This document shows positions 11,286 to 57,594 of a stretch of 64,000 nucleotides of DNA, one piece after another. The stretch covers positions 1-64,000 of the forward strand of contig CAIVPR010000044.1 in the NCBI GenBank assembly GCA_903907865.1, read 5' to 3'. The stretch is from an uncultured Acidobacteriia bacterium. GTDB lineage: Bacteria; Acidobacteriota; Terriglobia; Bryobacterales; Bryobacteraceae. The position numbers were made by a program, and so were the translations under genes. Within the stretch, counting starts at the first letter, position 1. Each line of letters starts with the position of its first letter. The notes beneath the pieces were generated by a model. The model was not told the origin of the DNA and did not search any database. It saw nothing but the letters and a program-made list of their open reading frames with translations.

Positions 11286-11316
11286 CGGGCCGATTCGGCA
11301 GTGCGGCGGGCGCGGG

Positions 11317-12624
11317 TTAGAGGACTTTCAGGAAGTTGAGGAGGTCCCGTTTTTCGGTTTCCGTATAGCCGATGTGGAAGCGCTTGTCGTAGAAGTCGAC
11401 CACGTCCGCCAGGGTTGCGGCGGAGCCGTTCGTGAAGTAGGGGGCGTGGGCGGCCAGGCCGTGGAGTTGCTGCATTACGGTGACTCCGATGTCGGTGCAT
11501 CTGCCGGTAACCAGTGCGCGGCCAGGGTCCTGTGTATAGATGATACGGCCGTTGGCGCAGGTCGCTTTGAAGACGGGCAGGGGCGTGGATTCGTCCGGAG
11601 TGGCCAAGTTCAGGACGCCGATGTTCATCGGGGTTGCGGATCGCGACGGGGTGTGGCAACTGGCGCAGGAAACCTTGCCTTTGAAGTAGACCAAGCTGCC
11701 GCGCGCCACCGAGGCCCGGAAATCCTTCTGCAATTGGGCCAGGTCGGGCCCGACGTGCTGTTCCCAACTTGGAAACGCCGCGACCTTGCCCGTCACGCGG
11801 TCCGGGCCGAGGAACGCCGGGGCGGTGGGCTCGGTGAGGAGGCCGCCGCGGATGTCGGCGCTTTGGGTGGCGGCGATCTGGCGCTCGAAGGCGACGATCT
11901 GCGCCAGTTGCTCCTTGGTCGGCAGGTGTTCGGCCTGTTCGTGGCCGAGAATTGCCGCGACGGCCTGGGTGCGGAGGCTGGCTTCGCGACCGTCGGCCAT
12001 TATAAGGATGCCTGCGGGGTCGCCGTCCTCGCCTTTGGTCAGGTGCGTCAGGTTGGCGGCGGCGCGGGGGCGGCGGAAGACGGAGACCATGGGCGTCGGG
12101 CTGGTCAGGCCGTACTTGGGGTCGAGGTTGCAGCCGGTGGGGTCGCGCAGGACTTCGAGCCTGAAGTCGGGGGTTACAGATTTCGGGGGCCACGGCAGCG
12201 CGATGCGGAACAGGCCGCGGTTCAGCAGCAGAGAATGCGACGACGCTTTTTCCTGTGGCAGGCTGGGGCAATCAGAGCCATCGACGGCGGCGAAGACCGG
12301 ATCCTTGCCGTCGGTTTCATGCCAACGTCCCTGGATCGATTCCACGGAAACAGACATGGCGTTGGAAGGCTGGTGGCAGGTGATGCAGGCGCGTCCGTTG
12401 GTGCCGAGGGCCTCAAAAAATGCGTGGCCGACGGGATTCACGGCCCCGGCGGTGTTGACGATGCCGACCATGCCTTCGGCATTGTCGTAGTCCTCGGTTG
12501 CGGGAAGGGTGCCGGGCTGGTTGGCGTTCCACCAGATGCGGTCGGGCGGGTAGGAGCGGCGGCTTTGGGAAACCAGAAGAGTCGCGGCGGCGAGGACAAG
12601 GGCTGCGATGCGGAGGGCTTTCAT
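11317..12624 (-). CDS. Secreted di-haem c-type cytochrome
   Basis: 435 residues with an N-terminal signal peptide (RIAALVLAAATLLVSQS). Two haem-c attachment motifs are present, CITCH near residues 80-84 and CASCH near 320-324. The second lies in a C-terminal cytochrome domain that ends with HGLAAHAPYFTNGSAATLAD, a pattern seen in MauG/CcpA-like di-haem proteins, although spacing and the rest are not typical of a peroxidase. It is probably a periplasmic electron carrier or peroxidase. The ATG has an AGGA ribosome site 9 bases upstream and follows the GWxTD gene stop by 2 bp, so it is co-translated with it. Confidence 0.7.
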   Translation of the reverse strand: MKALRIAALVLAAATLLVSQSRRSYPPDRIWWNANQPGTLPATEDYDNAEGMVGIVNTAGAVNPVGHAFFEALGTNGRACITCHQPSNAMSVSVESIQGRWHETDGKDPVFAAVDGSDCPSLPQEKASSHSLLLNRGLFRIALPWPPKSVTPDFRLEVLRDPTGCNLDPKYGLTSPTPMVSVFRRPRAAANLTHLTKGEDGDPAGILIMADGREASLRTQAVAAILGHEQAEHLPTKEQLAQIVAFERQIAATQSADIRGGLLTEPTAPAFLGPDRVTGKVAAFPSWEQHVGPDLAQLQKDFRASVARGSLVYFKGKVSCASCHTPSRSATPMNIGVLNLATPDESTPLPVFKATCANGRIIYTQDPGRALVTGRCTDIGVTVMQQLHGLAAHAPYFTNGSAATLADVVDFYDKRFHIGYTETEKRDLLNFLKVL

Positions 12625-12626
12625 GG

Positions 12627-14645: not shown

Positions 14646-14646
14646 G

Positions 14647-17478
14647 CTAGAACTCGATCCGGCCGGCGAATTGGAGCATGCGGCCCGCGAAGGCCACGTC
14701 GCTGTTCTGGGTCGGGGCCCCGTAGGACGCCAAGTTTACTACGGTCTGGTAGCTGCCGTAGTTGGCGTGGTTCAGGAGGTTGAAGGCCTCGAACATCGGG
14801 ATGAAGCGGATCCGGTCCTTCACGCTGAAGGTCTTCGAGAGCCGGACGTCCATCCGCCCGATCTTGTTGCCGACCAGCGAGTCGCGCGCCACCAGTTTGT
14901 AGGCCACGCCGCCGATTGTCAGGGCCGAGACGTTGCCCGGTTGCCCGTAGTAGGCCGAGGACGCGGTGAACAGGCGGTCTGTGACACCGGTCGCGCCGAA
15001 CGGATTCTGGTTGGCGGTTACGGCGAAGTTCTGGCCGGAGCCGTAGTGGAAGGAGCCGCTGAGCGAGATCCCCCAGCGCCAGGAGTAAGACGCCGTCGTG
15101 GTAAGGGAGTGCTTCTGGTTGTCCGGCGAGACCGCCCATTCATCCGCCAGGTTGAACTGGTTGTTGGGGTAGTAGAACGGGCCGGTGGTGGAGTCCTTAA
15201 GGTGCGCCAAGGTGTAAGCCAGCGACGCCGAGAAGTTCTGGGCGAAGCGGTGCTGAACGCCGACGTGCAGCCCGTTGTAGATCGACCCGGCGGCGGCGGG
15301 CGTGGTGAAGTTCAGGATGCCCGCGAATGCGGGATTGGGGCGTCCGCCGGTGCTCGGGTTCACGGTGTAGCCGGTTGTCGGGTTGTAGAAGAGGTTGGCG
15401 TCCGTGCGCAGCCAGTCGTGGTAGACACGCCAGTGGACCACGTCGGCCGAGATGCTCCAGGTTTTGTCGATCTGGTGTTCCGCGCCGATGCTCATCTGCA
15501 GCGAATAGGGCGTATGGACGTTGGGCCCCAGCGGCTGGATGGTCTGGGCGACGACGGGCACTTGTCCCGAGAGGAACTGTGCGCCGGTGGTGGTGCCGAA
15601 CGGGGCCGAGAGGTTGATCGGGTTGGCCGCAGTGCCGGTGACGGACGGCGAGATGGTGGTCTGGCCGTTGAAGATCTGGTCGTCAATGGTCTGGTTGACC
15701 TGGATATCGGCGTAGAAGAGGCCCGCGCCGCCGCGGATGACGGTCTTGCGGTCGCCCTTGGGGTCCCAAACGAATCCGAGGCGCGGCTGGAAGAGCAGGT
15801 TGTCGTTGTAATGGGGCGTGGGGACGCCGCTCTTCAGGGTGAGATTGGGGTTGAAGATACCGAGGTCGTTGTCATACCGCAGGCCGAGGTTGAGGGTCAG
15901 CTTGGGGGTGATCTTCCAATCGTCCTGCAACCAGAAGGCGATGGCGTTGGTGGGCAGGCTGTAGAGGTAGCTGCCGAAACCTTGGGTGTAGGAGGTTGCG
16001 TAGGGGGCGAGCGCGGCGGTGTTCCACGTGGACGGGTCGTCCCACTTGGGGAATACGGTGGCAAGGTTGAGGGCGCTGACGCCGGAGGAGAACGAGAGCA
16101 CGGTGCCCCGGACGTTCTGGCCGAAGTTGCCGGAGTAGATGTTGTGCAGGTAGTCGAAGCCGGCGCGGAGGCTGTGGGCACCCTTCAGGACGAAGAGGTC
16201 GTCGCGGTATTGCCAGTCGTTTTGGCCGAGCTGTTGGGGGTAGTTGTAGGGGGAGCCGACGGTGATGGTCGGGAGCCGGTATTCGGGGCTCTGGATCAGC
16301 GGGGTGTTGGCCCAGTCGAAGTGGTTGAGGCCGACCTTGAGGTCGTTGACGGTGGACGGGGTGACAGTCCAGGTCCAGGTTCCGAGGGCTGCGTAGCTGG
16401 TGCGGGTGGAATCGGTCGCGCGGGTGGGGGACGAACTGCCGGTGACGTTGTTGAACGGCACCTGCCATGTGTAGCCGGTGGCGCGGACCGAGAGGCGGTG
16501 CTTGTCGCTGATGACCCAGTCGGAATGGAGCAGGTAGCTGTTGGTGCGGAGCTGGTTGGCGAAGGTGTAGGTGAGGCCGCCGAAGCCGGTGGGGGTGTCG
16601 AAGATGGTGGTCGGCTGGCGCTCGCCCTCGTACGCGAAGAAGAAGAACAGCTTGTTCTTGAGGATCGGGCCGCCGATGGTGCCGCCGAATTGCTGGTCTG
16701 AGAAGGGCAGGACCTTGTGGGCGACGGGGTCGGAGGCGTTGAACGCGTCGTTGCGGAAGTAGCCGTAGAGGGTGCCGTGGAAGGCGTTGGTGCCGGACTT
16801 GGTCTGGACGTTGACCTGCATGCGCGAGGAGCGGCCGAGGGTGGCGTCGAAGCGGTTGGTGATGATCTGGAACTGGTCGATTGCGTCCTGGCTGTATTGG
16901 GGCTCGCCGAAACCGTCGCTGGCCGAGTTTTGGGTGACCTGCTGGCCGTCGACGTTGATTTGGAGTTTACCGCTGTCGGTGGCGCCCAGGGGCGAATTGG
17001 TCACGGTGTTGTTGGTGATGCCGGGCACCATCATGGCAAGTTGGAGGTAATTGCGTCCATTCAACGGAACGCGGGCGACCTCGGTGGGGCTCACGTCCCC
17101 GGAGACTGTGGACGATGTGGTGTCCACCGCCGCGGCTTCGGCGACCACCGCGACCGAGGAGCTGGCGGTGGCCAACTGGAGCGCTACATCGACTGCGGCC
17201 ACTTGGCCGACCAGCACGGAGAGTGTCCGCTCGGCCGGGGCGAAACCGGGTGCCTCGAAGCGCAGGAGGTATGAGCCCGCGCGGAGGGTCGGGAACTGGT
17301 AGGTACCCGTGGAATTCGTCACGGTCTGGGTTTTGGTGCCGTCCTCGCTGCGGGCTGAAACCACCGCGTTTGCGAGAGCGGCCTTCGAGGGGTCGGTCAG
17401 GCGACCTCCGATGCCGGTCTGCTGGGCCAATGCGGCTGTCGCCATGGCCAGCAATGCCAAAGCTGCTTTCTGCAACAT
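14647..17478 (-). CDS. Oar-like TonB-dependent outer-membrane receptor with carboxypeptidase-regulatory-like domain
   Basis: 943 residues. A signal peptide (ALALLAMATAALAQ) is followed by a beta-sandwich domain, ~22-105 (IGGRLTDPSKAALANAVVSA, YQFPTLRAGSYLLRFEAPGF), of the carboxypeptidase regulatory-like type. A plug-like region follows (EVARVPLNGRNYLQLAMMVP), then a long barrel ending GRMLQFAGRIEF with the expected terminal Phe. This architecture is the Oar-like receptor, greatly expanded in Acidobacteriota, and the substrate cannot be told from sequence. Its stop lies immediately before the downstream ATG at 14645. The upstream M20 peptidase gene ends 30 bp before its start, so the group is likely one operon. 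Confidence 0.9.
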   Translation of the reverse strand: MLQKAALALLAMATAALAQQTGIGGRLTDPSKAALANAVVSARSEDGTKTQTVTNSTGTYQFPTLRAGSYLLRFEAPGFAPAERTLSVLVGQVAAVDVALQLATASSSVAVVAEAAAVDTTSSTVSGDVSPTEVARVPLNGRNYLQLAMMVPGITNNTVTNSPLGATDSGKLQINVDGQQVTQNSASDGFGEPQYSQDAIDQFQIITNRFDATLGRSSRMQVNVQTKSGTNAFHGTLYGYFRNDAFNASDPVAHKVLPFSDQQFGGTIGGPILKNKLFFFFAYEGERQPTTIFDTPTGFGGLTYTFANQLRTNSYLLHSDWVISDKHRLSVRATGYTWQVPFNNVTGSSSPTRATDSTRTSYAALGTWTWTVTPSTVNDLKVGLNHFDWANTPLIQSPEYRLPTITVGSPYNYPQQLGQNDWQYRDDLFVLKGAHSLRAGFDYLHNIYSGNFGQNVRGTVLSFSSGVSALNLATVFPKWDDPSTWNTAALAPYATSYTQGFGSYLYSLPTNAIAFWLQDDWKITPKLTLNLGLRYDNDLGIFNPNLTLKSGVPTPHYNDNLLFQPRLGFVWDPKGDRKTVIRGGAGLFYADIQVNQTIDDQIFNGQTTISPSVTGTAANPINLSAPFGTTTGAQFLSGQVPVVAQTIQPLGPNVHTPYSLQMSIGAEHQIDKTWSISADVVHWRVYHDWLRTDANLFYNPTTGYTVNPSTGGRPNPAFAGILNFTTPAAAGSIYNGLHVGVQHRFAQNFSASLAYTLAHLKDSTTGPFYYPNNQFNLADEWAVSPDNQKHSLTTTASYSWRWGISLSGSFHYGSGQNFAVTANQNPFGATGVTDRLFTASSAYYGQPGNVSALTIGGVAYKLVARDSLVGNKIGRMDVRLSKTFSVKDRIRFIPMFEAFNLLNHANYGSYQTVVNLASYGAPTQNSDVAFAGRMLQFAGRIEF

Positions 17479-17508
17479 GTTCGATTCTCCTTGTAACTGT
17501 TTTTTGGA

Positions 17509-18951
17509 TTACTTGCCGGCAACTTGAAGGAGCGTTTTGTAGATGAGATCCGTGCCTTGTTGGAGGCTTTCGATGCTCACACGCTCGTCGTTGCCGTGCA
17601 TCCGAGTGAGGTCTTCCGCGCTGATGGGATATGGATAGATCCCATAGACCGGGATGCCCCGACTGCGCCATGCGGCGGCGTCGGTACCGGCTTGGAAGAG
17701 GTACGTCGTTACAGGGACGTTGGGAAAGACAGAATTCGATTGCTGCACCAAGGCGCGGAAGAGTTCCGAGTCCTTGGTGGAGGGCTTCATGCGGCTCGCC
17801 ATTTTGATGTATTCGGCGTAGGCTGCGGGGTTGGCACCTGCGGGCATGCCACGGCTTCCGGCGTTGGTGACTTCCACGCGGGGGTCGTTGATCACGGCCT
17901 TCATTTCCGAGATGAGCTCGTCGGTGTTGGTGCCGGGGATGGTGCGGAAGTTGAGGGTCGCGTCGGCGGACCCTGGTATGACGTTGCCGCGGAAGCCTGC
18001 GTTGAGGAAGACGGGCGCGATGGTGTTGCGCATGATCGCGTGCAGGAGCGGGTCTTTGCTGATTTCGAGGGCTGCGATTTTGACTTTTTCGGGATCGGTG
18101 CCGGCGACGAGGTCGTGGAAATAGGTGGACATCGGCGGCGTGCTGGTCTTTTCGAGGGTGGTGAAGAATTCCTTGGTGCTGTCGATGAGTTTGGGCTGTG
18201 TGTCGTAGTCGCCGATTTTGGACATCGCTTTGGCGAGGGTGAAGATGGCGTTGTCGGGGCGGGGCATCGAGGAGTGGGTCGAGGTGCCCTTGGCGGTTAC
18301 GAGGAGGGAGACGCCGGACTTGTCGGCGGTGGAGATGCTGACGTAGCGGACGGTGCCGTCGGGATTCTTGATGATCCAGCCGCCCTCGTTGAGGGCGAAC
18401 TCGCAGTCGATCTTGTCGAAGTGGTCCTTGGCCAGCCAAGTGGTGTTGTACTGGCCGCCCTCTTCGTCGACTTCGGCGAGGAAGATGACGTCGCGGGCCA
18501 GCGGGACCTTGTTTTTGGCCAGCAGCATCGCGGCTTGGGCGAAGACGGCGAGGCCGCCCTTGAAGTCGATGGCGCCGCGTCCGAAGACGTAGCCGTCCTT
18601 GACGACGCCTTCGAAGGGGTCGACAGACCATTTTTCACGCTCAACGCCGACGACGTCCTCGTGGGCGGCGAGCAGGATGGGCTTCTTGGAGCCGTCACCT
18701 TTGAGGCGGGCGATGAAATGGGATTTGAGGGGGTCGGGGGTGGGGATGATGTCGATATGGAAGCCGAGGGGCTCGAACTTGGTCTTGAGGAAGGCGGCGA
18801 GTTTGGCCTCGTTGCCTGGGGGGTTGGCGGTGTTGACGCGGATGACCTCGGTGAGGAGTTTGGCCGTGTCGTTTAAGGGGGCTTGGGCGAAGAGCGTCGT
18901 GCTAAGGAGGAGCGCGGCGGCGGTTTTAAACAGCGTCGTTGGGCGTAGCAT
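17509..18951 (-). CDS. Secreted M20-family metallopeptidase/amidohydrolase
   Basis: 480 residues with a signal peptide (TAAALLLSTTLFAQA). Metal-site motifs of M20 peptidases are in order: LAAHEDVVG, GRGAIDFKGG, EVDEEGG, and a late His in RMHGNDERV. A dimerisation (lid) domain begins near residue 215 (SGVSLLVTAKGTSTHSSMPR). Its length fits the M20/ArgE-DapE-CPG2 group. It is exported, so it probably trims peptides or acylated amino acids in the periplasm. It is the first gene of the leftward group with the TonB receptor, hinting at peptide uptake, but the link is only by position. Confidence 0.85.
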   Translation of the reverse strand: MLRPTTLFKTAAALLLSTTLFAQAPLNDTAKLLTEVIRVNTANPPGNEAKLAAFLKTKFEPLGFHIDIIPTPDPLKSHFIARLKGDGSKKPILLAAHEDVVGVEREKWSVDPFEGVVKDGYVFGRGAIDFKGGLAVFAQAAMLLAKNKVPLARDVIFLAEVDEEGGQYNTTWLAKDHFDKIDCEFALNEGGWIIKNPDGTVRYVSISTADKSGVSLLVTAKGTSTHSSMPRPDNAIFTLAKAMSKIGDYDTQPKLIDSTKEFFTTLEKTSTPPMSTYFHDLVAGTDPEKVKIAALEISKDPLLHAIMRNTIAPVFLNAGFRGNVIPGSADATLNFRTIPGTNTDELISEMKAVINDPRVEVTNAGSRGMPAGANPAAYAEYIKMASRMKPSTKDSELFRALVQQSNSVFPNVPVTTYLFQAGTDAAAWRSRGIPVYGIYPYPISAEDLTRMHGNDERVSIESLQQGTDLIYKTLLQVAGK

Positions 18952-19047
18952 TGTCAGCCTCGCAGTGGGTGGTGTCCGGAATGTTCCGGCATGCAGCTCA
19001 CATGGCTGACTGGTAAAAAATGAGTGTGGCGCAGTCTGGGGGAAAAG

Positions 19048-19704
19048 TCAAGGGGTAAGCCAGAGTGGCGTGCTGCCGAGGTCGTCGGTCTGGACCAGGT
19101 CGCGGTCGTAGGCGACGCCGTCGACCACGAAGGTGCTACTGATGGTCTGCAGCATGCAGTAGCCGCGCGTTGGAATTGCGGGGACGGTGCTGCCGGACTG
19201 CCAGTAATACTGGACAGTTAGATTCTGGTAGAGTTCCTGTCCGGTCAGGCCGCAATTGGCTCCGACGTACAAGCCCGGAACGTAACCGGCGGAGGAAACC
19301 GCGGCGAACCACGCATTGCAGTATTGTTCGACGTTCGCGGCGGTATCAGTGGCATTGACGCCTTCGAGGTCGAGCCAAATCTGCATGCCGGTCGGGAGCC
19401 CGACCGCTTGTGCGTTTTGGACCGCATACTGGCCGTTCTGCTGGCCCAAGGGCTGCGTGGGAGTCCAGCCCTCACCCGCGACGTGCTGGACAGCCATCAG
19501 GGCGAGACCTGAGTCGAGGATTGTTTGGGCCTCGGAGGTAGTCAGGTCGCCGGCGGATTCGGTTGGGTGGCGGCTCAGGTAGCGGACCGCGAATTGGAAG
19601 CCTTGGGCCACGAACGCGGCGGCGGTGTCGGCGGTCAGGGCGGTGTCAGTGTCGAAACCGACGGATCCGTTCGGGGCGGATTGGATGGTGCCTTGCAGTG
19701 GCAT
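19048..19704 (-). CDS. DUF1906 glycoside-hydrolase-like protein
   Basis: 218 residues. The start (GSVGFDTDTALTADTAAAFV, then FAVRYLSRH) and the middle (QIWLDLEGVNATD and AGYVPGLYVGANC) match the DUF1906 / Rv2525c-like TIM barrel, related to GH25 lysozymes. Asp and Glu in LDLEGV occupy the usual active-site strand. No signal peptide is seen, so export would need another route. Members are thought to act on peptidoglycan or related glycans, but the substrate is not established. It is read in the same direction as the zeta-toxin pair, 19 bp downstream of the toxin stop. Confidence 0.75.
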   Translation of the reverse strand: MPLQGTIQSAPNGSVGFDTDTALTADTAAAFVAQGFQFAVRYLSRHPTESAGDLTTSEAQTILDSGLALMAVQHVAGEGWTPTQPLGQQNGQYAVQNAQAVGLPTGMQIWLDLEGVNATDTAANVEQYCNAWFAAVSSAGYVPGLYVGANCGLTGQELYQNLTVQYYWQSGSTVPAIPTRGYCMLQTISSTFVVDGVAYDRDLVQTDDLGSTPLWLTP

Positions 19705-19723
19705 GCGGTTGGAAGATACGGTA

Positions 19724-20374
19724 TCACGGGCGGGCGCTGCGGGCGAGAAGGCGGAGGTTGTCGATGGTGTATCGGGAGTTGGCGAGGGCGGTTTCGAGCC
19801 AGGAGGGGATCATATCGGATATTTGCTCCGGAGTGCCATCGGCGATCTTCAGCACTAGTCGTGGACTATCGGTGCGCACCGAGTTGTCGAAGATGCGCAG
19901 CCGATCAATCGTGCCCCGGATGCTTTCTGCAAAGGCCGTCACCAGATTGATCATGCTGTTCTGGTAGATGTCGCGCAGCTTGCGTTCGGTTGCCGAGTGG
20001 CCACCCAGCATGGCCCGGTTCGCCACGCGGCTGAGATGCTCCTCGACCGGTCCGGCGGCAAGGTAATCCATCATCACGTGGAAACCAAGGTCCTTCGCCA
20101 GTCGCATCTGATGGAAGCACGCCGGCGTACGCAGCGCGTTTTCGAAGGCGAAGGAGTGCCGGCTCTCAATGTGGTCCTCAATGAATTGTTGGAGTTGCTT
20201 TCCAGCAGCCGTGCGGATGTGGGGCGGAATGTTGTGGTAGGAGCCGTTGTTTAGCTTCGCGGCGCGGTCATCGCTGTTGAACCAGTCGATGCCTGCGTTT
20301 CGGACTGGAAAGCAACTGCTCTTGCCGCCGCCCGGGGGGCCGGCGACAACGACCATGAGGGGAGCGTGACGCAC
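19724..20374 (-). CDS. Zeta-toxin-like P-loop kinase (toxin)
   Basis: 216 residues. The Walker A motif GPPGGGKS is at residues 12-19, followed by DWFNSDDRAA, the usual UNAG-binding Asp region, and by FAFENALRTP, which resembles the zeta motif (F..E.T..S) that holds the second substrate. Zeta toxins phosphorylate UDP-N-acetylglucosamine and stall wall synthesis, and some relatives have other small-molecule targets. A small gene 8 bp upstream fits the antitoxin position. The pair is chromosomal and intact. Confidence 0.8.
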   Translation of the reverse strand: MRHAPLMVVVAGPPGGGKSSCFPVRNAGIDWFNSDDRAAKLNNGSYHNIPPHIRTAAGKQLQQFIEDHIESRHSFAFENALRTPACFHQMRLAKDLGFHVMMDYLAAGPVEEHLSRVANRAMLGGHSATERKLRDIYQNSMINLVTAFAESIRGTIDRLRIFDNSVRTDSPRLVLKIADGTPEQISDMIPSWLETALANSRYTIDNLRLLARSARP

Positions 20375-36569: not shown

Positions 36570-37802
36570 CTATTTCCCCGACTTCGGCCAGACCGTGCCT
36601 TGGTCCATCTTGGTAACCGCCGCCAGCCCCTTGTACAGGAATTTCTGCACACGTTGGCCGCGGTAGGTTTCGGTAGTGAAAATATTCCCTTTGGAGTCCG
36701 TCGCGATGCTGTGCACAGCGTAGAACTGTCCCGGCTGCCTTCCGCCGTCGCCGAACGTGGTCAGCGTGCGCAGCGACTGGCGGTCCAGCACGTGGACCTT
36801 CATGTTTGACCCGTCGGCCACGTAGATGAACTTCTGCTCGGGGTCTTTGGAGAATGCGATGTCGAAAACCGCGCCGTCGCCCAGCGTGTTCTTCTCGATC
36901 ACCACTTCCTTCACGAACGTGCCGTCGGTCTTGAAGACCTGGATACGGTCGTTGACGCGGTCGCAGACGTACAGCAGGCCGTCGTTGGCAAGCACCGCGC
37001 AGTGTACCGGTGTGCGGAACTGTTGGGCAGGCGGATCGTTCGGGTTGTACGGCGGCAGTTGCTTGTCGTCCGGCTTGTGCCCGTAGGCACCCCAGTGCCG
37101 CTTGTACTTGCCGGTCTCGGCGTCGAACACGATCACGCGCCGGTTGCCGTAGCCATCGGCCACATAGAGCTCGTTCGTCTTCGGGTCAACCATGGTCTTC
37201 GCCGGCAACCGCAGGTTTTCGATGTCGTTGGAGCCCTTGCTCGCCATCGGCTTCCCGATCTGCATCAGAAACTTGCCCGACTGCGTGAACTTCAGCACCA
37301 TGCTGTCGTGTACGCCGCCAGCGGCCGCCATTTGCGCCTCGTCGGCGGCAAGCTTGGCGTTGGTTGCGGTCCTGCCGTTGCCGCCGATCCAGACGTTGCC
37401 CTTGTAATCGACATCGATGCCGTGGTTGGACGAAGGCCAGTCGTAACCCTGCCCCGGACCACCCCAGCTTCCGATCAGATCGCCAGCCTCGTTGAACTCC
37501 AGCACCGGTGGTGCAGCCGCGCAGCAGTCCGCAGCTTTGGGCGACCACGTCGCGTACTTTTCCTTTTCCTCCAGCGAGCCCTCGCGGTGGATGATCCAAA
37601 CGTGGTCGTTCGAATCAACCGTTACGCCGATGGTGGCCCCGATCACCCAGTGGTTGGGCAGAGGCTTGGGCCACAGCGGGTCCACCTCGAATCGTGGAGC
37701 CTTCTCGCCGTCGGCGCGCACCGCGCGCTGCGACACCGACCAACCCGCCACGCACAAAATCCCCGCTACAACCACCAGCCCGGTATATTGGATACGCTTC
37801 AT
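36570..37802 (-). CDS. Secreted NHL propeller resembling peptidyl-alpha-hydroxyglycine amidating lyase (PAL), metal ligands present
   Basis: 410 residues with an N-terminal signal/anchor (GLVVVAGILCVAGWS). Six NHL blades are visible. SSNHGIDVDYKGNVWIGG, TPVHCAVLANDGLLYVCDR and AVHSIATDSKGNIFTTE place His127, His267 and His364 at the positions of the three zinc ligands of animal PAL. VADGYGNRR holds Tyr218, corresponding to the PAL active-site Tyr. RVNDRIQVFKTDGTFVKEV also parallels the PAL stretch. PAL splits peptidyl-hydroxyglycine into amidated peptide and glyoxylate. Substrate here is unknown. The ATG (37802-37800) has AAAGGA upstream, inside the hupE coding region. Confidence 0.7.
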   Translation of the reverse strand: MKRIQYTGLVVVAGILCVAGWSVSQRAVRADGEKAPRFEVDPLWPKPLPNHWVIGATIGVTVDSNDHVWIIHREGSLEEKEKYATWSPKAADCCAAAPPVLEFNEAGDLIGSWGGPGQGYDWPSSNHGIDVDYKGNVWIGGNGRTATNAKLAADEAQMAAAGGVHDSMVLKFTQSGKFLMQIGKPMASKGSNDIENLRLPAKTMVDPKTNELYVADGYGNRRVIVFDAETGKYKRHWGAYGHKPDDKQLPPYNPNDPPAQQFRTPVHCAVLANDGLLYVCDRVNDRIQVFKTDGTFVKEVVIEKNTLGDGAVFDIAFSKDPEQKFIYVADGSNMKVHVLDRQSLRTLTTFGDGGRQPGQFYAVHSIATDSKGNIFTTETYRGQRVQKFLYKGLAAVTKMDQGTVWPKSGK

Positions 37803-38994
37803 GTCGTCCTTTAACGTCCGTTATCTTATACCAATCGTTCTTTTCGTTGCAGTCACTCCCGTCCTGGCTCATGACATCCCCGCCGACGTGGCCGTCCAGA
37901 CGATGCTGAAACCCGAGGGACGCCAGCTCCGCATGCTTGTCCGGCTCCCGCTCAAGGCGATGCGCGACGTCGTGTTCCCCGAGCAGGGCGGCGGCTACCT
38001 CGACATCGAACAGCTCGCTCCGATGCTGCCAGATGCGGCGACCGTCTGGATCGGCCAGCTCGTGGAGCTGTACGAGGACGGGCGACGGCTTCCAAGCCCG
38101 CGTGTCGAGGCCGTTCAGATCTCTTACGAATCGGACCGCTCGTTCGCGTCATTTCCGGAAGCGCTCGCCCATACGACGGGGCCTCGACTCCCCAACTCTT
38201 CCAACCTGCACTGGAGCCAGGCGATGTTCGATGTGCTGTTCGTCTACGACATCGGTTCGGAGGCGTCGAAATTTTCGATCCGTCCAGGCCTTAGGCATTT
38301 GGCGACCCGCGTCGTTGTGTCGCTCCGATACCTCCCGCCGGGGGGAGCGGTGCGTGCGTATGAACTGCAGGGTGCCGAAGACGTCGTGCCTCTCGACCCG
38401 GGCTGGACCGATGCTTTCGCCCGTTTCGTGCGCTTGGGGTTCCTGCATATCCTCGACGGCACGGACCATCTGCTATTCCTCGCTTGTCTGGTGATCCCGT
38501 TCCGGAGGCTGAAGCCGTTGGCGGGTATCGTGACGGCTTTCACAATCGCGCATTCCATCACATTGGCGACGTCCGCGCTCGGGTATGCCCCGGACCAGGG
38601 GTGGTTTCCGCCGTTGATCGAGTTGCTGATCGCGGTTTCGATCGTCTGGATGGCCTTGGAGAACATCGTGGGCACGACCACCGTGACCCGCCGGTGGGCC
38701 ATGGCGTTCGGTTTTGGGCTGGTACACGGTTTCGGCTTCTCGTTCGCGCTGCGCGAGACGCTGCAGTTCGCCGGATCGCATTTGGCGGCATCACTGGTGG
38801 CGTTTAATGCCGGTGTGGAGTTGGGGCAGTTGGCGGTCCTGATCGTGCTGGTTCCGGCGTTGGACTTCTTCCTTCGCCGGGTGGTTCCGGAAAGAACAGG
38901 CACGATCATTCTGTCGGCGCTGGTGGCGCACACCGGGTGGCACTGGATGCTGGAACGGTGGGATAGGCTGCACCAGTACCGTATCGGTTGGTGA
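37801..38994 (+). CDS. HupE/UreJ-type membrane protein
   Basis: 397 residues. A signal peptide (YLIPIVLFVAVTPVLAHD) is followed by a ~190-residue periplasmic domain, then a HupE/UreJ_2 membrane part. FLHILDGTDHLLFL and AHSITLATSA in the first two helices carry the His/Asp residues of this family, and FGLVHGFGFSFAL lies further on. HupE proteins are thought to be nickel or metal permeases; this long form with an extracytoplasmic domain is common in Bacteroidota and Acidobacteriota and its substrate is unproven. The start codon overlaps that of the divergent PAL-like gene (CATG at 37800-37803). Confidence 0.82.
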   Translation: MSSFNVRYLIPIVLFVAVTPVLAHDIPADVAVQTMLKPEGRQLRMLVRLPLKAMRDVVFPEQGGGYLDIEQLAPMLPDAATVWIGQLVELYEDGRRLPSPRVEAVQISYESDRSFASFPEALAHTTGPRLPNSSNLHWSQAMFDVLFVYDIGSEASKFSIRPGLRHLATRVVVSLRYLPPGGAVRAYELQGAEDVVPLDPGWTDAFARFVRLGFLHILDGTDHLLFLACLVIPFRRLKPLAGIVTAFTIAHSITLATSALGYAPDQGWFPPLIELLIAVSIVWMALENIVGTTTVTRRWAMAFGFGLVHGFGFSFALRETLQFAGSHLAASLVAFNAGVELGQLAVLIVLVPALDFFLRRVVPERTGTIILSALVAHTGWHWMLERWDRLHQYRIGW

Positions 38995-39007
38995 CGCGCT
39001 GAAAACG

Positions 39008-39068
39008 ACACTCCCTTGCTGTCGTGGCTCGGCTGAACTTACTGAGCGGCAACCACAAGGGAGTGTGT
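39008..39068. repeat. Long hairpin from two inverted copies of the repeat core, between convergent genes
   Basis: CGACACTCCCTTGCTGTCGTG at 39008 onward is followed by the inverse CACAAGGGAGTGTGTCG ending near 39068. The arms pair over about 11-14 bases around a ~30-base loop. The left arm is a copy of the core of the 10766-11285 array (ACTCCCTTGCGGTCGTGGCT). It separates hupE from the converging propeller gene and could end transcription both ways, although no T-run follows. Confidence 0.6.
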
Positions 39069-39081
39069 CGAAATGCTGTAC

Positions 39082-40128
39082 TTACTTGGCTGGTTTGAGG
39101 GTCAGCTTCTGGACCCGCCAGTTCTGCACTTCCGCAACAAGCAGGGTGTTCGGATTCCGGCAGTCCATCGCGTTGACGGTCCCGAACTCCTTTACAAGCT
39201 TCCCGGCCGTCCCGAATTTGCCCAAGACCTTGCCGTCCAGTTCCAGCTTGTAGATCTCGCCGTTGTCCAGCGTTTCGGGGTCGTTCGAGTTCGAACTGTA
39301 CAGATACTGGTGAGCGCCGGGTGAAATGCAGAGCGTCCACGGGGCGCCGACGCCGGTGATCTCGGACTTGAAGGCTCCCTCGTTGTCGAACACCTGGATG
39401 CGCTTGTTGCCCAAATCGGCTACGTACACGTTGCCTTGGGCGTCCACCGCGACCGAATTGGGCATGTTGAACTGGCCTTGGCCTGAACCTTTCGAACCCC
39501 AGGTCTTCACGAAGCGCCCCGTCTTGTCGAGCTTGACTATGCGGGCGTTTGTGTAGGCGTCGGAGACGAACATGTTGCCTTGTGCGTCGAAGGCGACATC
39601 TGTGGGGCGGTTGAAGTTATCGCCCTGCACGCCTTGGCCTGGAGTGCCGCCGCGACCGCGTCCGCCGCCTGCTCCCGCGGGTGCCGGGGTGGGGCTGATC
39701 GACTCCGGCTTGCGGCTGAGCACTTGGAGGAACTTGCCGGTCTGGTCGAATTTGATCAGCGTGTTGGAGGCCCGGTCGACGGTCCAGATGTTGTCCTGCG
39801 CGTCCACGCGGACGCCTTGCGCGAACAGGAAACCGTAGATGCCGGTGCCGATTTCGCGCACGAATTTGCCGGTCGCGTCGAACTCGAACAGGCGCGAGCC
39901 GCCGTGCGAGAAGAAGCGCGAGCCGCCCATGGTGCCGTTCTCGCCGGAGCGGGAGAAGACGAAGATGTTGCCCTTCGAATCCGTCGCGACGCCAGCCGCC
40001 TCGCCGAGATGGATGTTGGCGGGGAACTTGAGCAGGCTCGCGTTGGAATCGAAGGCGATTTCAGGTGTCTGGGCATTCACGGTGCCGCCCAGCAGGAGGG
40101 CCAAAGCCAATAGGGATAGGGTCTTCAT
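39082..40128 (-). CDS. Secreted NHL propeller, PAL-like paralogue that has lost the metal histidines
   Basis: 348 residues from ATG at 40128, with AAGGAG 7 bases upstream. Signal peptide LLALALLLGGTVNAQ. It aligns along its whole length with the next gene (FLFAQGVRVDAQDNIWTVDR against FVFAHAVRVDSEDNIWAVDE). At the three zinc-His positions it has Gln104, Asn224 and Asn319; Tyr192 (SDAYTNAR) remains. A Gly/Ala/Arg-rich insertion lies near 150-170. The gene is therefore a tandem duplicate probably unable to bind the PAL-type metal. It may be a binding protein or have a different reaction. Confidence 0.72.
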   Translation of the reverse strand: MKTLSLLALALLLGGTVNAQTPEIAFDSNASLLKFPANIHLGEAAGVATDSKGNIFVFSRSGENGTMGGSRFFSHGGSRLFEFDATGKFVREIGTGIYGFLFAQGVRVDAQDNIWTVDRASNTLIKFDQTGKFLQVLSRKPESISPTPAPAGAGGGRGRGGTPGQGVQGDNFNRPTDVAFDAQGNMFVSDAYTNARIVKLDKTGRFVKTWGSKGSGQGQFNMPNSVAVDAQGNVYVADLGNKRIQVFDNEGAFKSEITGVGAPWTLCISPGAHQYLYSSNSNDPETLDNGEIYKLELDGKVLGKFGTAGKLVKEFGTVNAMDCRNPNTLLVAEVQNWRVQKLTLKPAK

Positions 40129-40145
40129 GGCGTTCTCCTTAGTCG

Positions 40146-41198
40146 TTACTTCGCCGCTTCGGGCTTGAGCAGGATCTTCTGCGCCCGCCAAAGCTGGATT
40201 TCCGAGGTGTAGAGTTCATTCGGGTTGCGGCAGTCGATCTCATGCAGTCCGCTGAACTCGCCGAGCTGCTTGCCGGCCTTGCCGAATTTTCCGATCACGG
40301 TCCCGTCCAGCTCCATCTTGTAGACCTCGCCGGTGACGGTGGCGAGAGTGTAGTCGTTGTTGTCCGGAAAGGTGTTCGAGGAATAGAGGTATTGGTGCGG
40401 ACCGGGGCTGATGCAGAGTTCCCACGGGGTGCCGACGTTGTCGTAGATGGTCTTGAAGCGCAGGTCGTTGTCGAAGACTTGGATGCGGCGGTTGGTGCGG
40501 TCGGCTACGTAGACGTTGCCCTGGCCGTCCACGGCGAGCGAGTGCGGCAGGTTCAACTGGCCCATCCCGGAACCCTTGGTGCCGACCTGAGCGATGAAAC
40601 GTCCGTTCTTGTCGTATTTAACGACGCGCGAGTTGCCGTAGCCATCGGCCACGAAGATGTTCCCGGCGGGGTCCCAACCGACGTCGGAGGGGCGGTCGAA
40701 GACGTACTTGCCGGGATTCGTCGGCGTGTACGGGGACGGTGGCGCACCGGAATCGACGGGTTCCGGGCGACGGCCCAGGGTCATGACGACGCGGCCCGCG
40801 GGGTTGAACTTGATCACCATGTTGGAGCCTTCGTCGACGGCCCAGATGTTGTCTTCGGAATCGACGCGGACGGCGTGCGCAAAAACAAAGCCATAGAGGC
40901 CTTCGCCGACTTCGCGCACGAACGCGCCGGTCTTGTCGAACTCGAACAGGCGCGTTGCTTGGCTGCGCGTGTAGACGAAGATGTGGCCCTTGGAATTGGT
41001 GGCGATGCCGATACCCTCGCCCAAGTAGAGGCCGGGCGGCATTTTGAGGAAGTTCGGGACGGACTCCCAAGGGATGACCGGGACGTTCTGGACCTTGGCC
41101 TTGGTGGCAAGGGCAGCGGCGGAGAGTTCCTGCGCCTGAGCGCAGGCGGTTAGCGCGCAGGCGGCGAGGAGTGTTCGTAGTGTGGGGCCTGTTTTCAT
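40146..41198 (-). CDS. Secreted NHL propeller resembling PAL, metal ligands present
   Basis: 350 residues from ATG at 41198, preceded by AGAGG. Signal peptide TLLAACALTACAQAQ. FVFAHAVRVDSEDNIWAVDE, LNLPHSLAVDGQGNVYVADR and SGLHEIDCRNPNELYTSE give His108, His219 and His319, matching the PAL zinc ligands; VADGYGNSR holds Tyr187 and YTRSQATR a possible active-site Arg. It lies 17 bp upstream of its degenerate paralogue. It is divergent, across 134 bp, from a gene encoding the complementary PHM-type monooxygenase domain. Activity on amidation intermediates is an inference from these residues. Confidence 0.72.
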   Translation of the reverse strand: MKTGPTLRTLLAACALTACAQAQELSAAALATKAKVQNVPVIPWESVPNFLKMPPGLYLGEGIGIATNSKGHIFVYTRSQATRLFEFDKTGAFVREVGEGLYGFVFAHAVRVDSEDNIWAVDEGSNMVIKFNPAGRVVMTLGRRPEPVDSGAPPSPYTPTNPGKYVFDRPSDVGWDPAGNIFVADGYGNSRVVKYDKNGRFIAQVGTKGSGMGQLNLPHSLAVDGQGNVYVADRTNRRIQVFDNDLRFKTIYDNVGTPWELCISPGPHQYLYSSNTFPDNNDYTLATVTGEVYKMELDGTVIGKFGKAGKQLGEFSGLHEIDCRNPNELYTSEIQLWRAQKILLKPEAAK

Positions 41199-41332
41199 AT
41201 AGCCTCTTTCTGAGGGAACGGGCGGGGCCGACATGGTCGGCCCTTGCCAGTATATATCGGACTCGAGGGGGCCAAGGTGCACTGCCGCGAGGTCTGTGTT
41301 CGTGAGTGGGTAGGGTCGGCTAGATTAGAACT

Positions 41333-43417
41333 ATGCACCGTCTCGCGACTCCGTCTCTTCTGTTGACCGCCCTAGCCCTTGCCGCCCCTGCGCAGACGGT
41401 CACCTACACCAAGGACATCGCGCCCATCATCTACAACAACTGCACGTCGTGCCACCGTCCGGGCCAGGTTTCCCCGTTTGCGTTGATGAGCTACGCGGAT
41501 GTGGCCAAGCACGCCCCCACTATCGCAGCGACGACGCAGTCCCGCTACATGCCGCCGTGGAAAGCAGAGCCGGGCTATACCTCCTACAGGAACGAGCGCC
41601 GCCTGACGGCCAGCCAGATCAACTTGATCCAGAAATGGGTCGACCAGGGCATGCAGCAGGGCGATCCCGCCTTGGAACCGCCGGTTCCGACCTTTCCCAC
41701 CGACTGGCAGCTTGGTACGCCTGATCTGGTGCTGCAGATGCCGACCTCGTTCACCGTTCCCGCCGACGGGCCCGACATCTACCGGAACTTCGTCCTGCAG
41801 ACAGGTTTGAAGTCCGACCAATATCTCCGCGCGTTGGAGATCAAGTCGTCGGCTCCGACCGTGATGCACCACGTGCTGTTCTATTCCGACACTTCCGGCG
41901 ATGGCCGCAAGATGGATGGTGCCGATGGTCAGCCGGGTTTCCCGGGTTTCGGCTCGGTATTTCTACTCGGGTCCAGCAGCAACCTTTCCGCCACCATCGC
42001 GAATGCCCTCGCCGGCGGGTTGGGCGGCTGGGTCCCGGGCGCGACTCCCGAGTTCCTTCCCACGGGGATCGCCTATACGCTTCCCAACGGTGCCGACTTG
42101 ATCCTGCAAAGCCATTTCCATCCCGATGGCAAGGTGGAGCAGGCGCAACTCACGGTGGCGCTCTATTTTGCCCCAAAACCGGCCAGCCAGGTCTTCAGCG
42201 TGCAGGCTCCGGGTTTCTTCGGAATCCAGGCCAACATCGATATCCCGGCGGGCAAGAGCGACTACATGGTCCGGAGTTCCTATACCCTGCCTGTGGACGT
42301 GGATGCCTTCAGCGTGTCGGCCCATGCCCACTATTTGGGGAAGGGAAGCCGCATGACAGCCACCCTGCCGACGGGCGAAGTGCGCATTCTGCTCTGGATC
42401 AAGGACTGGGATTTCAGTTGGCAGGATACCTACATGTTGCAGAACCTCATGACCCTGCCAAAGGGCACGAGGATCGACGGTGAGTTGATCTACGACAACT
42501 CGGCCAACAATCCGCGCAACCCGTTCAGCCCGCCAAAGGAAGTCAAGTGGGGGGAGAACTCGACGGATGAGATGGGGAGTCTGATCTTGAATGTGGTTCC
42601 GCATTCGCCGTCCGACGCTCTCTCGCTCCAAGCCTCCATGGTTTCCTACGTGTCGAAAACGGCGGCACCGGTGGGCAACAAGCCGCTGTTTATTTCAACC
42701 GGGGTTGTGGACGGGGCAAGCGCGGAGTCGGGTGCTGTGGTGCCGGGCAAGGTGTTGGCCCTGTACGGGGCTCGGCTGGCTCCAACCGGATATGCCGGAC
42801 CGCAAGTAGACAACGGCAAGTTCGCCAGCAAGGTGAACAATGTCCAAGTCTTGTTTGACACGGTGCCGGCTCCAATCTTGTACACCACCGACGGGCAGTT
42901 GTCCGTCGTTGCACCGTACGCGTTGGATGGAAAGAGCGGGACCCAGGTCGTTGTAAAAAATGGCAGCTTTAGCTCCGATCCAGTTGCCCTACCCGTGGCC
43001 CGTGTGGCCCCGTCGATTTTCTCGACCAATCTTACAGGCACTGGTCAAGGCGCGGTTCTCAACCAAGACCTTTCGCCGAACAACGCCAAGAATCCGGCCC
43101 CGGCTGGCTCGATCATTGTTGTCTACGCTACGGGCGAAGGACAGACGACTCCCGGTGGCGTTGACGGCCAACGCGCGGACGGTCCGACCTACCCGTCGCC
43201 CGCACCTAAACCGGTCACGGTCACCATCGGTGGAGTCCCAGCCGAGGTTCTGTACGCCGGAGCCGCGCCGCAGTTGATCGCGGGCGTGATGCAGGTGAAC
43301 GCCAGGATTCCCGCCGGTGTGCAAACGGGGGACCAACCGCTGGTAGTCACAGTTGGGACCTCGGCCAGCCAGCCCGGAATCACCGTCGCGGTAAAGTATG
43401 CGCTGTCGGGTTTATAA
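41333..43417 (+). CDS. Cytochrome c / PHM-type copper monooxygenase / TIGR03437 fusion
   Basis: 694 residues, exported (SLLLTALALAAPAQ). Haem-c motif CTSCH is at 37-41, in a small cytochrome domain to ~110. Residues ~125-425 match the copper type II ascorbate-dependent monooxygenase family: MHHVLFY (His179, His180), QSHFHPDG (His261), SAHAHYLGKG (His331, His333) and STDEMGSLI (Met414). These are the five His and one Met that bind CuH and CuM in PHM. Residues ~450-694 are the TIGR03437 domain typical of Solibacter relatives (VNNVQVLFDTVPAPILYT, VYATGEGQT). The cytochrome could deliver the electrons that ascorbate gives in animals. Substrate unknown. Confidence 0.85.
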   Translation: MHRLATPSLLLTALALAAPAQTVTYTKDIAPIIYNNCTSCHRPGQVSPFALMSYADVAKHAPTIAATTQSRYMPPWKAEPGYTSYRNERRLTASQINLIQKWVDQGMQQGDPALEPPVPTFPTDWQLGTPDLVLQMPTSFTVPADGPDIYRNFVLQTGLKSDQYLRALEIKSSAPTVMHHVLFYSDTSGDGRKMDGADGQPGFPGFGSVFLLGSSSNLSATIANALAGGLGGWVPGATPEFLPTGIAYTLPNGADLILQSHFHPDGKVEQAQLTVALYFAPKPASQVFSVQAPGFFGIQANIDIPAGKSDYMVRSSYTLPVDVDAFSVSAHAHYLGKGSRMTATLPTGEVRILLWIKDWDFSWQDTYMLQNLMTLPKGTRIDGELIYDNSANNPRNPFSPPKEVKWGENSTDEMGSLILNVVPHSPSDALSLQASMVSYVSKTAAPVGNKPLFISTGVVDGASAESGAVVPGKVLALYGARLAPTGYAGPQVDNGKFASKVNNVQVLFDTVPAPILYTTDGQLSVVAPYALDGKSGTQVVVKNGSFSSDPVALPVARVAPSIFSTNLTGTGQGAVLNQDLSPNNAKNPAPAGSIIVVYATGEGQTTPGGVDGQRADGPTYPSPAPKPVTVTIGGVPAEVLYAGAAPQLIAGVMQVNARIPAGVQTGDQPLVVTVGTSASQPGITVAVKYALSGL

Positions 43418-56571: not shown

Positions 56572-56682
56572 ACCCGTCTCCGATTCATGGTACACCATAT
56601 ACATTCGTAGTGGTACCCCAAGTTGTTGTTTCATCGAAGGTTAATATCCCATGGGAAGTGTCGGGCTATTCTAAAGGGGAAC

Positions 56683-57594
56683 ATGTCCCGAGTTGCGTCC
56701 CTACTCCGAGCGGTGCCCACGACATCTGCGACCCTACTGTGTGCCTTCGTCTGCGTGGGCATCCTGCAAGCCCAGTCGAAGGCGCCGGAGTTCAGCGGCG
56801 AGGCTGCCCTCGGATACACCGCAAAGGCGGTGGCTTTTGGCCCGCGCCCGTCGGGCTCGGCGGAGAATGTTAAATTGCGCGCTTGGATCCGCCAGCAACT
56901 GGCGACACGTGGGTGCGAGATCACTTCCGACAAGTTCACGGCGCAGACCCCGTCCGGACCGGTCCAGATGGAAAACCTCATCGCTAGGTTTCCAGGCAAG
57001 TCCGGAAAGGCCATCGCCATTACCGGCCACTTCGACACCAAGAAGATGGACAAGTTCGTCGGTGCCAACGACGGTGGATCCTCGACCGGCTTCCTGCTGG
57101 AACTGGCCGCGGTCATGCAGGGCCGTCCCCGGCAGGACGACCTGATCCTCGTGTTTTTCGACGGCGAGGAAGCGGTGAAGGAATGGACCGACACCGACAG
57201 TATCTACGGCAGTCGGCATCTGGCAGAAAAGTGGAACACCGACGGCACCAACCGCAAGCTGAAGGCGCTGATCAATGTGGATATGATCGGCGACAAGAAC
57301 TTCAGCATTGTGTGGGAAACCAATTCCGCGGCGTCCTTGCGCAAGTTTGTCTGGGACACGGCCGACTCGTTGGGCTACTCGAAGTACTTCCCGCGCGACG
57401 GCGGCAACGTGGCTGACGACCACATGCCGTTCCTCAATGCCGGCGTGCGAGCGCTGGACTTGATCGATTTCCAATCACAGGGCTCGTTCTGGCACACGCC
57501 TCAGGACACCATGGACAAGCTGTCGGCCAACAGCTTCAAGATTCTGGGCACAGTCGTTGTCAAAGCGATCGAGGGACTGGAATCGCAACGGTGA
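56683..57594 (+). CDS. Secreted M28-family, glutaminyl-cyclase-like protein
   Basis: 303 residues from ATG at 56683 (AAAGGGG upstream). A signal peptide (TLLCAFVCVGILQAQ) precedes an M28 fold. TGHFDTKK and GANDGGSSTGFLLELA hold the first metal ligands. LVFFDGEEAVKEW followed by DSIYGSRHLAEKW, and DDHMPFLNAGVRALDLIDF with FWHTPQD, match animal and bacterial glutaminyl-peptide cyclotransferases more than ordinary aminopeptidases. Such enzymes form N-terminal pyroglutamate. A peptidase role remains possible. The stop overlaps the truB GTG. Confidence 0.8.
   Translation: MSRVASLLRAVPTTSATLLCAFVCVGILQAQSKAPEFSGEAALGYTAKAVAFGPRPSGSAENVKLRAWIRQQLATRGCEITSDKFTAQTPSGPVQMENLIARFPGKSGKAIAITGHFDTKKMDKFVGANDGGSSTGFLLELAAVMQGRPRQDDLILVFFDGEEAVKEWTDTDSIYGSRHLAEKWNTDGTNRKLKALINVDMIGDKNFSIVWETNSAASLRKFVWDTADSLGYSKYFPRDGGNVADDHMPFLNAGVRALDLIDFQSQGSFWHTPQDTMDKLSANSFKILGTVVVKAIEGLESQR

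What the first reader, a model, noticed from the sequence alone, without database searches (positions are those of the whole stretch)
36570..43417. A split bacterial PAM-like system: PHM-type monooxygenase next to three PAL-like propellers
Animal PAM joins PHM (copper monooxygenase) and PAL (zinc lyase) to amidate peptides. Here a cytochrome c-PHM-TIGR03437 protein has all copper ligands (His179, 180, 261, 331, 333, Met414). The divergent neighbour at 40146 and the propeller at 36570 keep the three PAL His plus the active-site Tyr. All are exported. A cytochrome domain may replace ascorbate. A possible pyroglutamate-forming enzyme also occurs at 56683. To my knowledge such a set has not been described as a system.
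Basis: partly seen in the sequence, partly recalled or inferred. Interest (0 to 1): 0.78.

Follow-up and report, generated by a model that had tools for sequence, protein, structure and literature searches.

The report
Cytochrome-fused copper monooxygenase beside unrelated propellers
A soil bacterium carries an exported copper enzyme built like the first half of the animal peptide-amidating enzyme, but the neighbouring propeller proteins that resemble the second half belong to separate gene pairs that seem merely to sit next to it here, so this is probably not a bacterial peptide-amidating system.

Summary
The genes and residues are real. MOX (41333-43417) is a c-type cytochrome fused to a PHM/DBM-fold domain with all six copper ligands. 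P3 (40146-41198) and P1 (36570-37802) are NHL propellers keeping the three PAL histidines, the tyrosine and the arginine; P2 (39082-40128) has lost all three histidines. 'Split PAM system' is not supported. In relatives the pieces separate: P3-P2 is a recurrent tandem pair, P1 is paired with a HupE/UreJ membrane protein, and MOX usually lies elsewhere: none in 20 fetched P3/P2 loci, and 4.6-6.9 kb away in 2 of 20 P1 loci. Of 80 named MOX loci, 3 have a P3-like propeller in the flanks, a mild excess over chance. The recurrent partner of the cytochrome-PHM family is a redoxin, adjacent or fused in 61 of 80; the window's copy lacks it. The PHM residue that anchors the glycine carboxylate (Arg240, recalled) is Arg in 0 of 80, arguing against peptidylglycine as substrate. 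Best reading: a haem-wired copper monooxygenase of unknown, probably non-peptide substrate, beside PAL-like propellers that work separately. In-trans two-step chemistry is not excluded.

The parts
41333..43417 (+). MOX: cytochrome c - PHM/DBM-fold protein with C-terminal TIGR03437 domain, 694 aa
41393..41653 (+). c-type cytochrome domain of MOX (about residues 21-107; C37, C40, H41, M73)
   Evidence: invariant in 80 of 80 aligned sequences; borders approximate; Met73 as haem ligand is inference
41714..42667 (+). PHM/DBM-fold domain of MOX (residues 128-445; H179, H180, H261, H331, H333, M414)
   Evidence: VIA Z 21.5 to PHM 5wja, 21.0 to 1phm, 20.2 to human DBH 4zel; hmmsearch E 3.7e-5 to PHM
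42704..43396 (+). TIGR03437 (Soli_cterm) domain of MOX
   Evidence: NCBIfam 3.7e-62
40146..41198 (-). P3: PAL-like NHL propeller with R78, H108, Y187, H219, H319 (numbered from the ATG at 41198)
   Evidence: model Z 32.4 to PAL 3fvz, tied with other NHL propellers
39082..40128 (-). P2: tandem paralogue of P3, three histidines lost (Q, N, N)
36570..37802 (-). P1: PAL-like propeller with R73, H127, Y218, H267, H364
   Evidence: 16 of 16 aligned sequences
37801..38994 (+). HupE/UreJ_2 membrane protein, divergent partner of P1
   Evidence: PF13795 5.9e-43; near P1 in 18 of 20 relatives' loci

Best explanation
Three separate modules lie side by side. (1) MOX is one of seven full-length paralogues in this genome of a large family of c-haem-fused PHM/DBM-fold copper proteins. 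Most likely it is an O2-dependent hydroxylase outside the cytoplasm: the fused haem passes electrons from periplasmic carriers to CuH (H179, H180, H261), and O2 is activated at CuM (H331, H333, M414). The substrate is unknown and probably not a glycine-extended peptide. (2) P3-P2 is a recurrent tandem pair of PAL-like propellers, one with the full residue set and one degenerate. (3) P1 is a PAL-like propeller paired with a HupE/UreJ membrane protein. Shown: folds, ligands, neighbourhoods. Inferred: export, metal content, electron path, hydroxylation, any lyase activity.
For: PHM fold: mean pLDDT 90.8, Z 21.5 with rmsd 2.8 over 269 residues; profile match to PHM E 3.7e-5 with HH, H172 and HxH in register. 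Ligands and haem motif invariant. Expansion: 51 of 61 genomes, up to 27 matches in one; seven full-length in G000. Separation: MOX profile found in 0 of 20 P3/P2 loci and 2 of 20 P1 loci, at 4.6 and 6.9 kb; 1 of 40 other MOX loci holds a P3-like propeller, without the His; in G015 MOX, P3/P2 and P1 are on three contigs. P3 and P2 both present in 15 of 20 fetched loci, one P3 cut by a contig end. P1-HupE in 18 of 20 and on a Skermanella plasmid. G087 has P3/P2 and no reported MOX match. Redoxin beside or fused to MOX: 61 of 80, 14 of 40 relatives' loci. Arg240 position is Arg in 0 of 80.
Against: Genome level, naive: MOX and P3-like genes co-occur, 49 both, 2 MOX only, 4 P3 only, 6 neither of 61 genomes (p 9e-5), and 12, 19, 6, 112 of 149 (p 7e-6); P1-profile matches, some weak, occur only in MOX-bearing genomes, 38 of 38. 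Relatedness is not corrected and no control family was run. Neighbourhood level: four P3-like propellers in 3 of 80 loci against 0.56 expected (p 0.02 by loci, 0.003 by propellers). Reading the capped tables gave five more near cases; in the fetched DNA four propellers with R-H-Y-H-H lie 1.6, 5.9, 6.1 and 8.6 kb from a MOX and one R-H-H-H-E propeller 4 bp from it. Many contigs are short, so linkage can be missed. The window's MOX has no redoxin beside it. A Methylobacterium P1 relative has no HupE annotated next to it. No activity or metal was measured.
Confidence: 0.72

Rival explanations
1. One reading: MOX and the PAL-like propellers form a split bacterial PAM that amidates glycine-extended peptides outside the cell.
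For: PHM fold and ligands; three His, Tyr and Arg of PAL in P3 and P1; divergent P3-MOX arrangement in the window; naive genome-level co-occurrence; a few 3-His propellers near MOX elsewhere.
Against: Linkage is rare; each propeller has its own recurrent partner; the Arg240 position is Arg in 0 of 80; the positions of Asn316 and Tyr318 (placed by the DEM motif only) are mostly Ser (50 of 80, Asn in 2) and Thr (39 of 80, no Tyr among the eight commonest) (roles recalled); G087 has P3/P2 with no reported MOX.
Confidence: 0.06
2. Dispersed two-step chemistry in trans: MOX paralogues hydroxylate N-alkyl or other substrates and PAL-like propellers cleave the carbinolamide product, mostly without gene linkage and not on classic glycine peptides.
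For: Genome-level co-occurrence; full residue set in P3 and P1; mild excess of propellers near MOX.
Against: Co-occurrence may reflect shared lifestyle or ancestry; propellers of these kinds occur in genomes with no reported MOX, such as G087 and G098.
Confidence: 0.13
3. MOX is not an oxygenase but a copper- and haem-binding electron-transfer or copper-handling protein, with the redoxin of its relatives as copper-loading or peroxide-removing partner.
For: Redoxin with C53-P-x-x-N57, H93 and C180 invariant in 17 of 17 aligned, fused or adjacent in 61 of 80 loci; copy expansion.
Against: Both copper sites are fully kept, which fits catalysis better than simple binding; the window copy has no redoxin neighbour.
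Confidence: 0.15

Closest known systems
Peptidylglycine alpha-hydroxylating monooxygenase (PHM, first domain of animal PAM; 1PHM, 1OPM)
   Same: Fold over 269 residues at Z 21.5; CuH ligands and the CuM HxH in register
   Different: 14-16% identity in the top PHM rows; fused c-type cytochrome and TIGR03437; Arg240 position is Gly, Ser or Thr in 64 of 80 and Arg in none; no PAL domain
Dopamine beta-hydroxylase (DBH, 4zel)
   Same: Same fold at Z 20.2; DBH too lacks a glycine-peptide anchor (recalled)
   Different: Not among the sequence matches; its extra N-terminal domain is DOMON (recalled), here a cytochrome c
PAL, lyase domain of PAM (3FVZ)
   Same: P3 model Z 32.4 over 279 residues at 25% identity; phmmer E 3.2e-18; three His, Tyr, Arg kept
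   Different: Tied with NHL propellers that are not known as lyases (Thin Z 33.6); separately encoded; recurrent partners are P2 (for P3) and HupE (for P1)
[quoted passage not shown]
   Same: Same broad NHL/PAL-like group; Mesorhizobium and Priestia plasmid copies are 22-24% identical to P1
   Different: The one copy viewed sits beside ectoine-use genes, not a PHM; the name is an annotation
Scytonemin-cluster NHL proteins ScyF / ScyD / ScyE
   Same: ScyF model is the best NCBIfam match of all three propellers
   Different: Far below the curated cut-off (78-95 of 350 bits)

Membership tests
PHM/DBM-fold copper monooxygenases | PHM/DBM fold of the catalytic core | tested here: met
   Z 21.5 to 5wja, 20.2 to 4zel; next other rows (PNGase F) 8.3
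PHM/DBM-fold copper monooxygenases | CuH three His and CuM two His plus Met | tested here: met
   His 80 of 80, Met 79 of 79; register of HH, H172 and HxH printed, Met placed by the DEM motif (recalled for PHM). Clustering in 3D not measured: no coordinates available
PHM/DBM-fold copper monooxygenases | Pfam Cu2_monoox_C curated cut-off | tested here: not met
   13.9 of 23 bits for the window protein; two paralogues in the genome pass
PHM (peptidylglycine-specific) | Arg240 that binds the substrate carboxylate (role recalled) | tested here: not met
   The Arg two residues before HxH faces the column of Ser329; Arg in 0 of 80
PHM (peptidylglycine-specific) | Asn316 and Tyr318 (recalled) | tested here: inconclusive
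   S416 and I418 by the DEM motif only; a search meant to print this region found nothing
PHM (peptidylglycine-specific) | Hydroxylation of glycine-extended peptides | not testable with these tools
   needs enzyme assay
PAL | Six-bladed NHL propeller | tested here: met
   P3 model pLDDT 82.1, Z 32.4 to 3fvz; P1 was not modelled
PAL | Three zinc His plus active-site Tyr and Arg (recalled as H585, H690, H786, Y654, R533) | tested here: met
   P3 13 of 13, P1 16 of 16. Equivalence rests on motif order, recalled PAL motifs and end-points of phmmer matches; no residue-level alignment to 3fvz was printed
PAL | The same residues in P2 | tested here: not met
   R-Q-Y-N-N
PAL | Lyase activity on alpha-hydroxyglycine | not testable with these tools
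   needs enzyme assay
PAM as a system | PHM and PAL joined, or conserved as neighbours | tested here: not met
   0 of 20 P3/P2 loci; 2 of 20 P1 loci at 4.6-6.9 kb; 3 of 80 MOX loci with a P3-like propeller; scattered near cases
Glutaminyl cyclase (56623-57594) | Sequence relatedness to solved glutaminyl cyclases of the M28 fold | tested here: met
   Peptidase_M28 6.3e-39; PDB 7d18 8.3e-58 (named Peptidase M28), then glutamine cyclotransferases from 1.9e-29; activity not tested

The most novel reading that the evidence does not exclude
Acidobacteriota run a PAM-like two-step reaction (copper hydroxylation, then zinc-propeller cleavage) outside the cytoplasm with separately encoded, multi-copy hydroxylases and lyases that meet in trans, driven by a fused cytochrome in place of ascorbate, on substrates other than classic peptidylglycines.
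Probability: 0.13. Interest if true: 0.75.

Novelty: new variant of a known kind. Interest (0 to 1): 0.42.

Why it matters
PHM and DBH take electrons from ascorbate. Here a family with the same two-copper site carries its own c-type haem and, in 61 of the 80 loci examined, a redoxin beside it or fused to it. That suggests a bacterial route to PHM-type chemistry without ascorbate; record titles place the family in Acidobacteriota, Planctomycetota, Verrucomicrobiota and others. If it hydroxylates, it is a large pool of oxygenases for which I found no assay in print. The result also warns that fold and ligand matches next to each other do not make a pathway.

Tried and rejected
Rejected: a conserved, linked PHM-PAL system. 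Rejected: P2 as a PAL. Not pursued: any tie of the M28/glutaminyl-cyclase-like gene to MOX in relatives. Rejected: L099 and L111 as P3 or P1 next to MOX; their blast matches to MOX are not matched by the PHM profile. Rejected: a propeller subtype (R-H-H-H-E, seen next to MOX in L141 and L234) as a dedicated MOX partner. Its profile gave 46 listed matches in 10 of 149 phylum genomes and 72 in 31 of 61 relatives. Held against the listed MOX places (capped lists), I found only the seed G129:C39 and G043:C223 (5.3 kb) within 10 kb, and G098 and G087 have the subtype with no reported MOX.

Printing a residue-level alignment of P3 or P1 to PAL 3fvz: three searches ranked other NHL chains first. A C-terminal MOX profile found no PDB chain. 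No model coordinates were in the Python box, so metal-residue distances were not measured. Literature: nothing on a bacterial PHM-PAL pair or on cytochrome-PHM-redoxin in what was listed (several listings capped; open-access library only), so absence is weak evidence.

The redoxin profile was trained on 37 proteins of 36 of those loci and searched in all 80. 'Adjacent' there means open frames within 300 bp or overlapping. The propeller density (29 genes of 57 bits or more in 64.4 Mb, ten genomes) I counted by hand; for 19 acidobacterial loci alone the expected number is 0.36 against three propellers in two loci. Gene calls came from a crude script that missed HupE in the window. The sets were typed from the tables. 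Residue calls for distant propellers rest on one MAFFT addition.
Full report
Observation. Likely starts are 41198 for P3 and 40128 for P2, a methionine before a signal-like stretch (by eye). MOX has the six copper ligands at the numbers given.

What MOX is. Pfam alone is unconvincing (PF03712 13.9 bits, cut-off 23). A profile of 52 sequences matches PHM chains in the PDB at E 3.7e-5, with the HH pair, His172 and the HxH pair in register. The AlphaFold model (mean pLDDT 90.8) aligns to PHM at Z 21.5, rmsd 2.8, 269 residues, and to human DBH at Z 20.2; the next other rows, PNGase F, are at 8.3. The cytochrome motif, Met73 and the His ligands are invariant in 80 of 80 aligned sequences, Met414 in 79 of 79. 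The family is expanded: 51 of 61 genomes (own plus 60 relatives), up to 27 matches in one. This genome has seven full-length copies.

What the substrate probably is not. In PHM the C-terminal carboxylate of the peptide is held by Arg240 (recalled). In the printed alignment that Arg, two residues before the HxH motif, faces the column of Ser329. Across 80 sequences the position is Gly, Ser or Thr in 64 and Arg in none. The positions of Asn316 and Tyr318, placed only by the shared DEM motif, are Ser416 and Ile418. This lowers the claim that MOX is a PHM; it does not lower the claim that it works like one.

The propellers. P3 and P1 keep Arg, three His and Tyr at PAL-like positions in 13 of 13 and 16 of 16 sequences. 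The P3 model aligns to PAL 3fvz at Z 32.4, but other NHL propellers score as high (Thin 33.6), so the fold alone does not identify a PAL. P2 keeps the Arg in 14 of 14 sequences; 12 have lost all three His, L088 keeps the second only, and L097 keeps all three but has His in place of Tyr. That the pair arose by duplication and one copy then decayed while being kept is inference.

Is there a system? In 40 other MOX neighbourhoods (35 from relatives, 5 from this genome) a P3-like propeller was found in one, L041, and it lacks the His. In 20 fetched P3/P2 loci the MOX profile finds nothing, and in 20 P1 loci it finds MOX twice, 4.6 and 6.9 kb from P1; in G016 a MOX lies on the P3/P2 contig about 21 kb away. 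P3 and P2 are both present in 15 of the 20, one P3 cut by a contig end. P1 has the HupE/UreJ protein near it in 18 of 20. A Skermanella plasmid copy at 41% identity has HupE/UreJ next to it; a Methylobacterium copy at 50% does not. In G015, with orthologues of 82-93% identity, MOX, P3/P2 and P1 lie on three contigs, and MOX is not found in the 13.4 kb P3/P2 contig. G087 has P3/P2 and no reported MOX match at E 1e-20.

Evidence the other way. Genome-level co-occurrence is real on a naive count: 49/2/4/6 of 61 genomes (p 9e-5) and 12/19/6/112 of 149 (p 7e-6); P1-profile matches, some weak, were found only in MOX-bearing genomes, 38 of 38. Relatedness was not corrected and no control family was run. 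In the 80 named loci, four P3-like propellers lie in three loci, against 0.56 expected from ten of the genomes (p 0.02 by loci, 0.003 by propellers). Two of the four keep three His and Tyr but not the Arg (L179 second copy, L151); two read R-H-H-H-E (L141, 14 bp from MOX, tail to tail, and L179 first copy). Reading the capped match tables side by side gave five more near cases in four genomes. In the fetched DNA, propellers with R-H-Y-H-H lie 1.6, 5.9, 6.1 and 8.6 kb from a MOX, and an R-H-H-H-E propeller lies 4 bp from it on the same strand. The 5.9 and 6.1 kb cases are from one genus. I then tested the R-H-H-H-E subtype: of 118 listed matches (46 and 72, two genome samples that share the own genome, which has none), two lie within 10 kb of a listed MOX, one of them the seed (against 10 and 48). 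So a mild excess remains, without a conserved arrangement.

The recurrent partner. Clustering of neighbours in the 80 loci shows a redoxin-like gene near MOX in 36 loci (one member matches AhpC/TSA at 8e-10). With a profile made from those, 61 of 80 loci have it: 49 adjacent on the same strand, 1 adjacent on the other strand, 11 in the same open frame; in no locus is the nearest one farther than 300 bp. Some of the 19 without are cut close to MOX by contig ends. In the 40 other MOX loci 14 have it, including L031, an orthologue of the window type. C53, P54, N57, H93 and C180 are invariant in 17 of 17 aligned. None of the seven copies in the window's genome has it alongside: the window and five loci, and C117. 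The genome's single match of this kind at E 1e-20 lies on another contig with no MOX within the 12 kb fetched.

Mechanism. Most likely a copper hydroxylase wired to the periplasmic electron pool through its own haem; the redoxin of relatives may load copper, keep a thiol reduced or remove peroxide (inference). The PAL-like propellers most likely act on their own.

Verdict. Good eye for residues, probably wrong system. The interesting remainder is the cytochrome-PHM-redoxin family and the P3/P2 pair. Papers: I saw find-passages of PMC6123673 (names His107, His108, His172 as CuH ligands and Met314 as CuM), PMC12508155, PMC10886904, PMC6919629 and PMC5461114, a find without hits in PMC3197665, and search listings otherwise.

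Noticed in passing
window 39082-41198; L083-L100: P3-P2 tandem: a full-set and a degenerate PAL-like propeller kept side by side (both in 15 of 20 fetched loci); in L097 the second copy still has the three His.
   Followed up: partly
window 36570-38994; L103-L122; L224: P1 near a HupE/UreJ_2 membrane protein in 18 of 20 relatives' loci and on a Skermanella plasmid: a propeller-permease pair I know of no description of, possibly for metal handling.
   Followed up: partly
L124-L202: Redoxin with invariant Cys, His and second Cys fused or adjacent to cytochrome-PHM proteins in 61 of 80 loci.
   Followed up: partly
window 56623-57594: Animal-type glutaminyl-cyclase-like M28 protein; best PDB match 7d18.
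   Followed up: partly
G000:C90:29884-30390 (L226): The genome's only redoxin match of this kind has no MOX nearby; in L226 and L228 it follows a similar larger gene on the same strand.
   Followed up: partly
L141:9911-12404; L234:2674-5487: Propellers reading R-H-H-H-E at the PAL positions, 14 bp (tail to tail) and 4 bp (same strand) from a cytochrome-PHM frame; the subtype is not generally linked to MOX.
   Followed up: yes
window 10001-20000: Stretch of strong GC skew (0.20 to 0.31), unlike the rest of the window.
   Followed up: no
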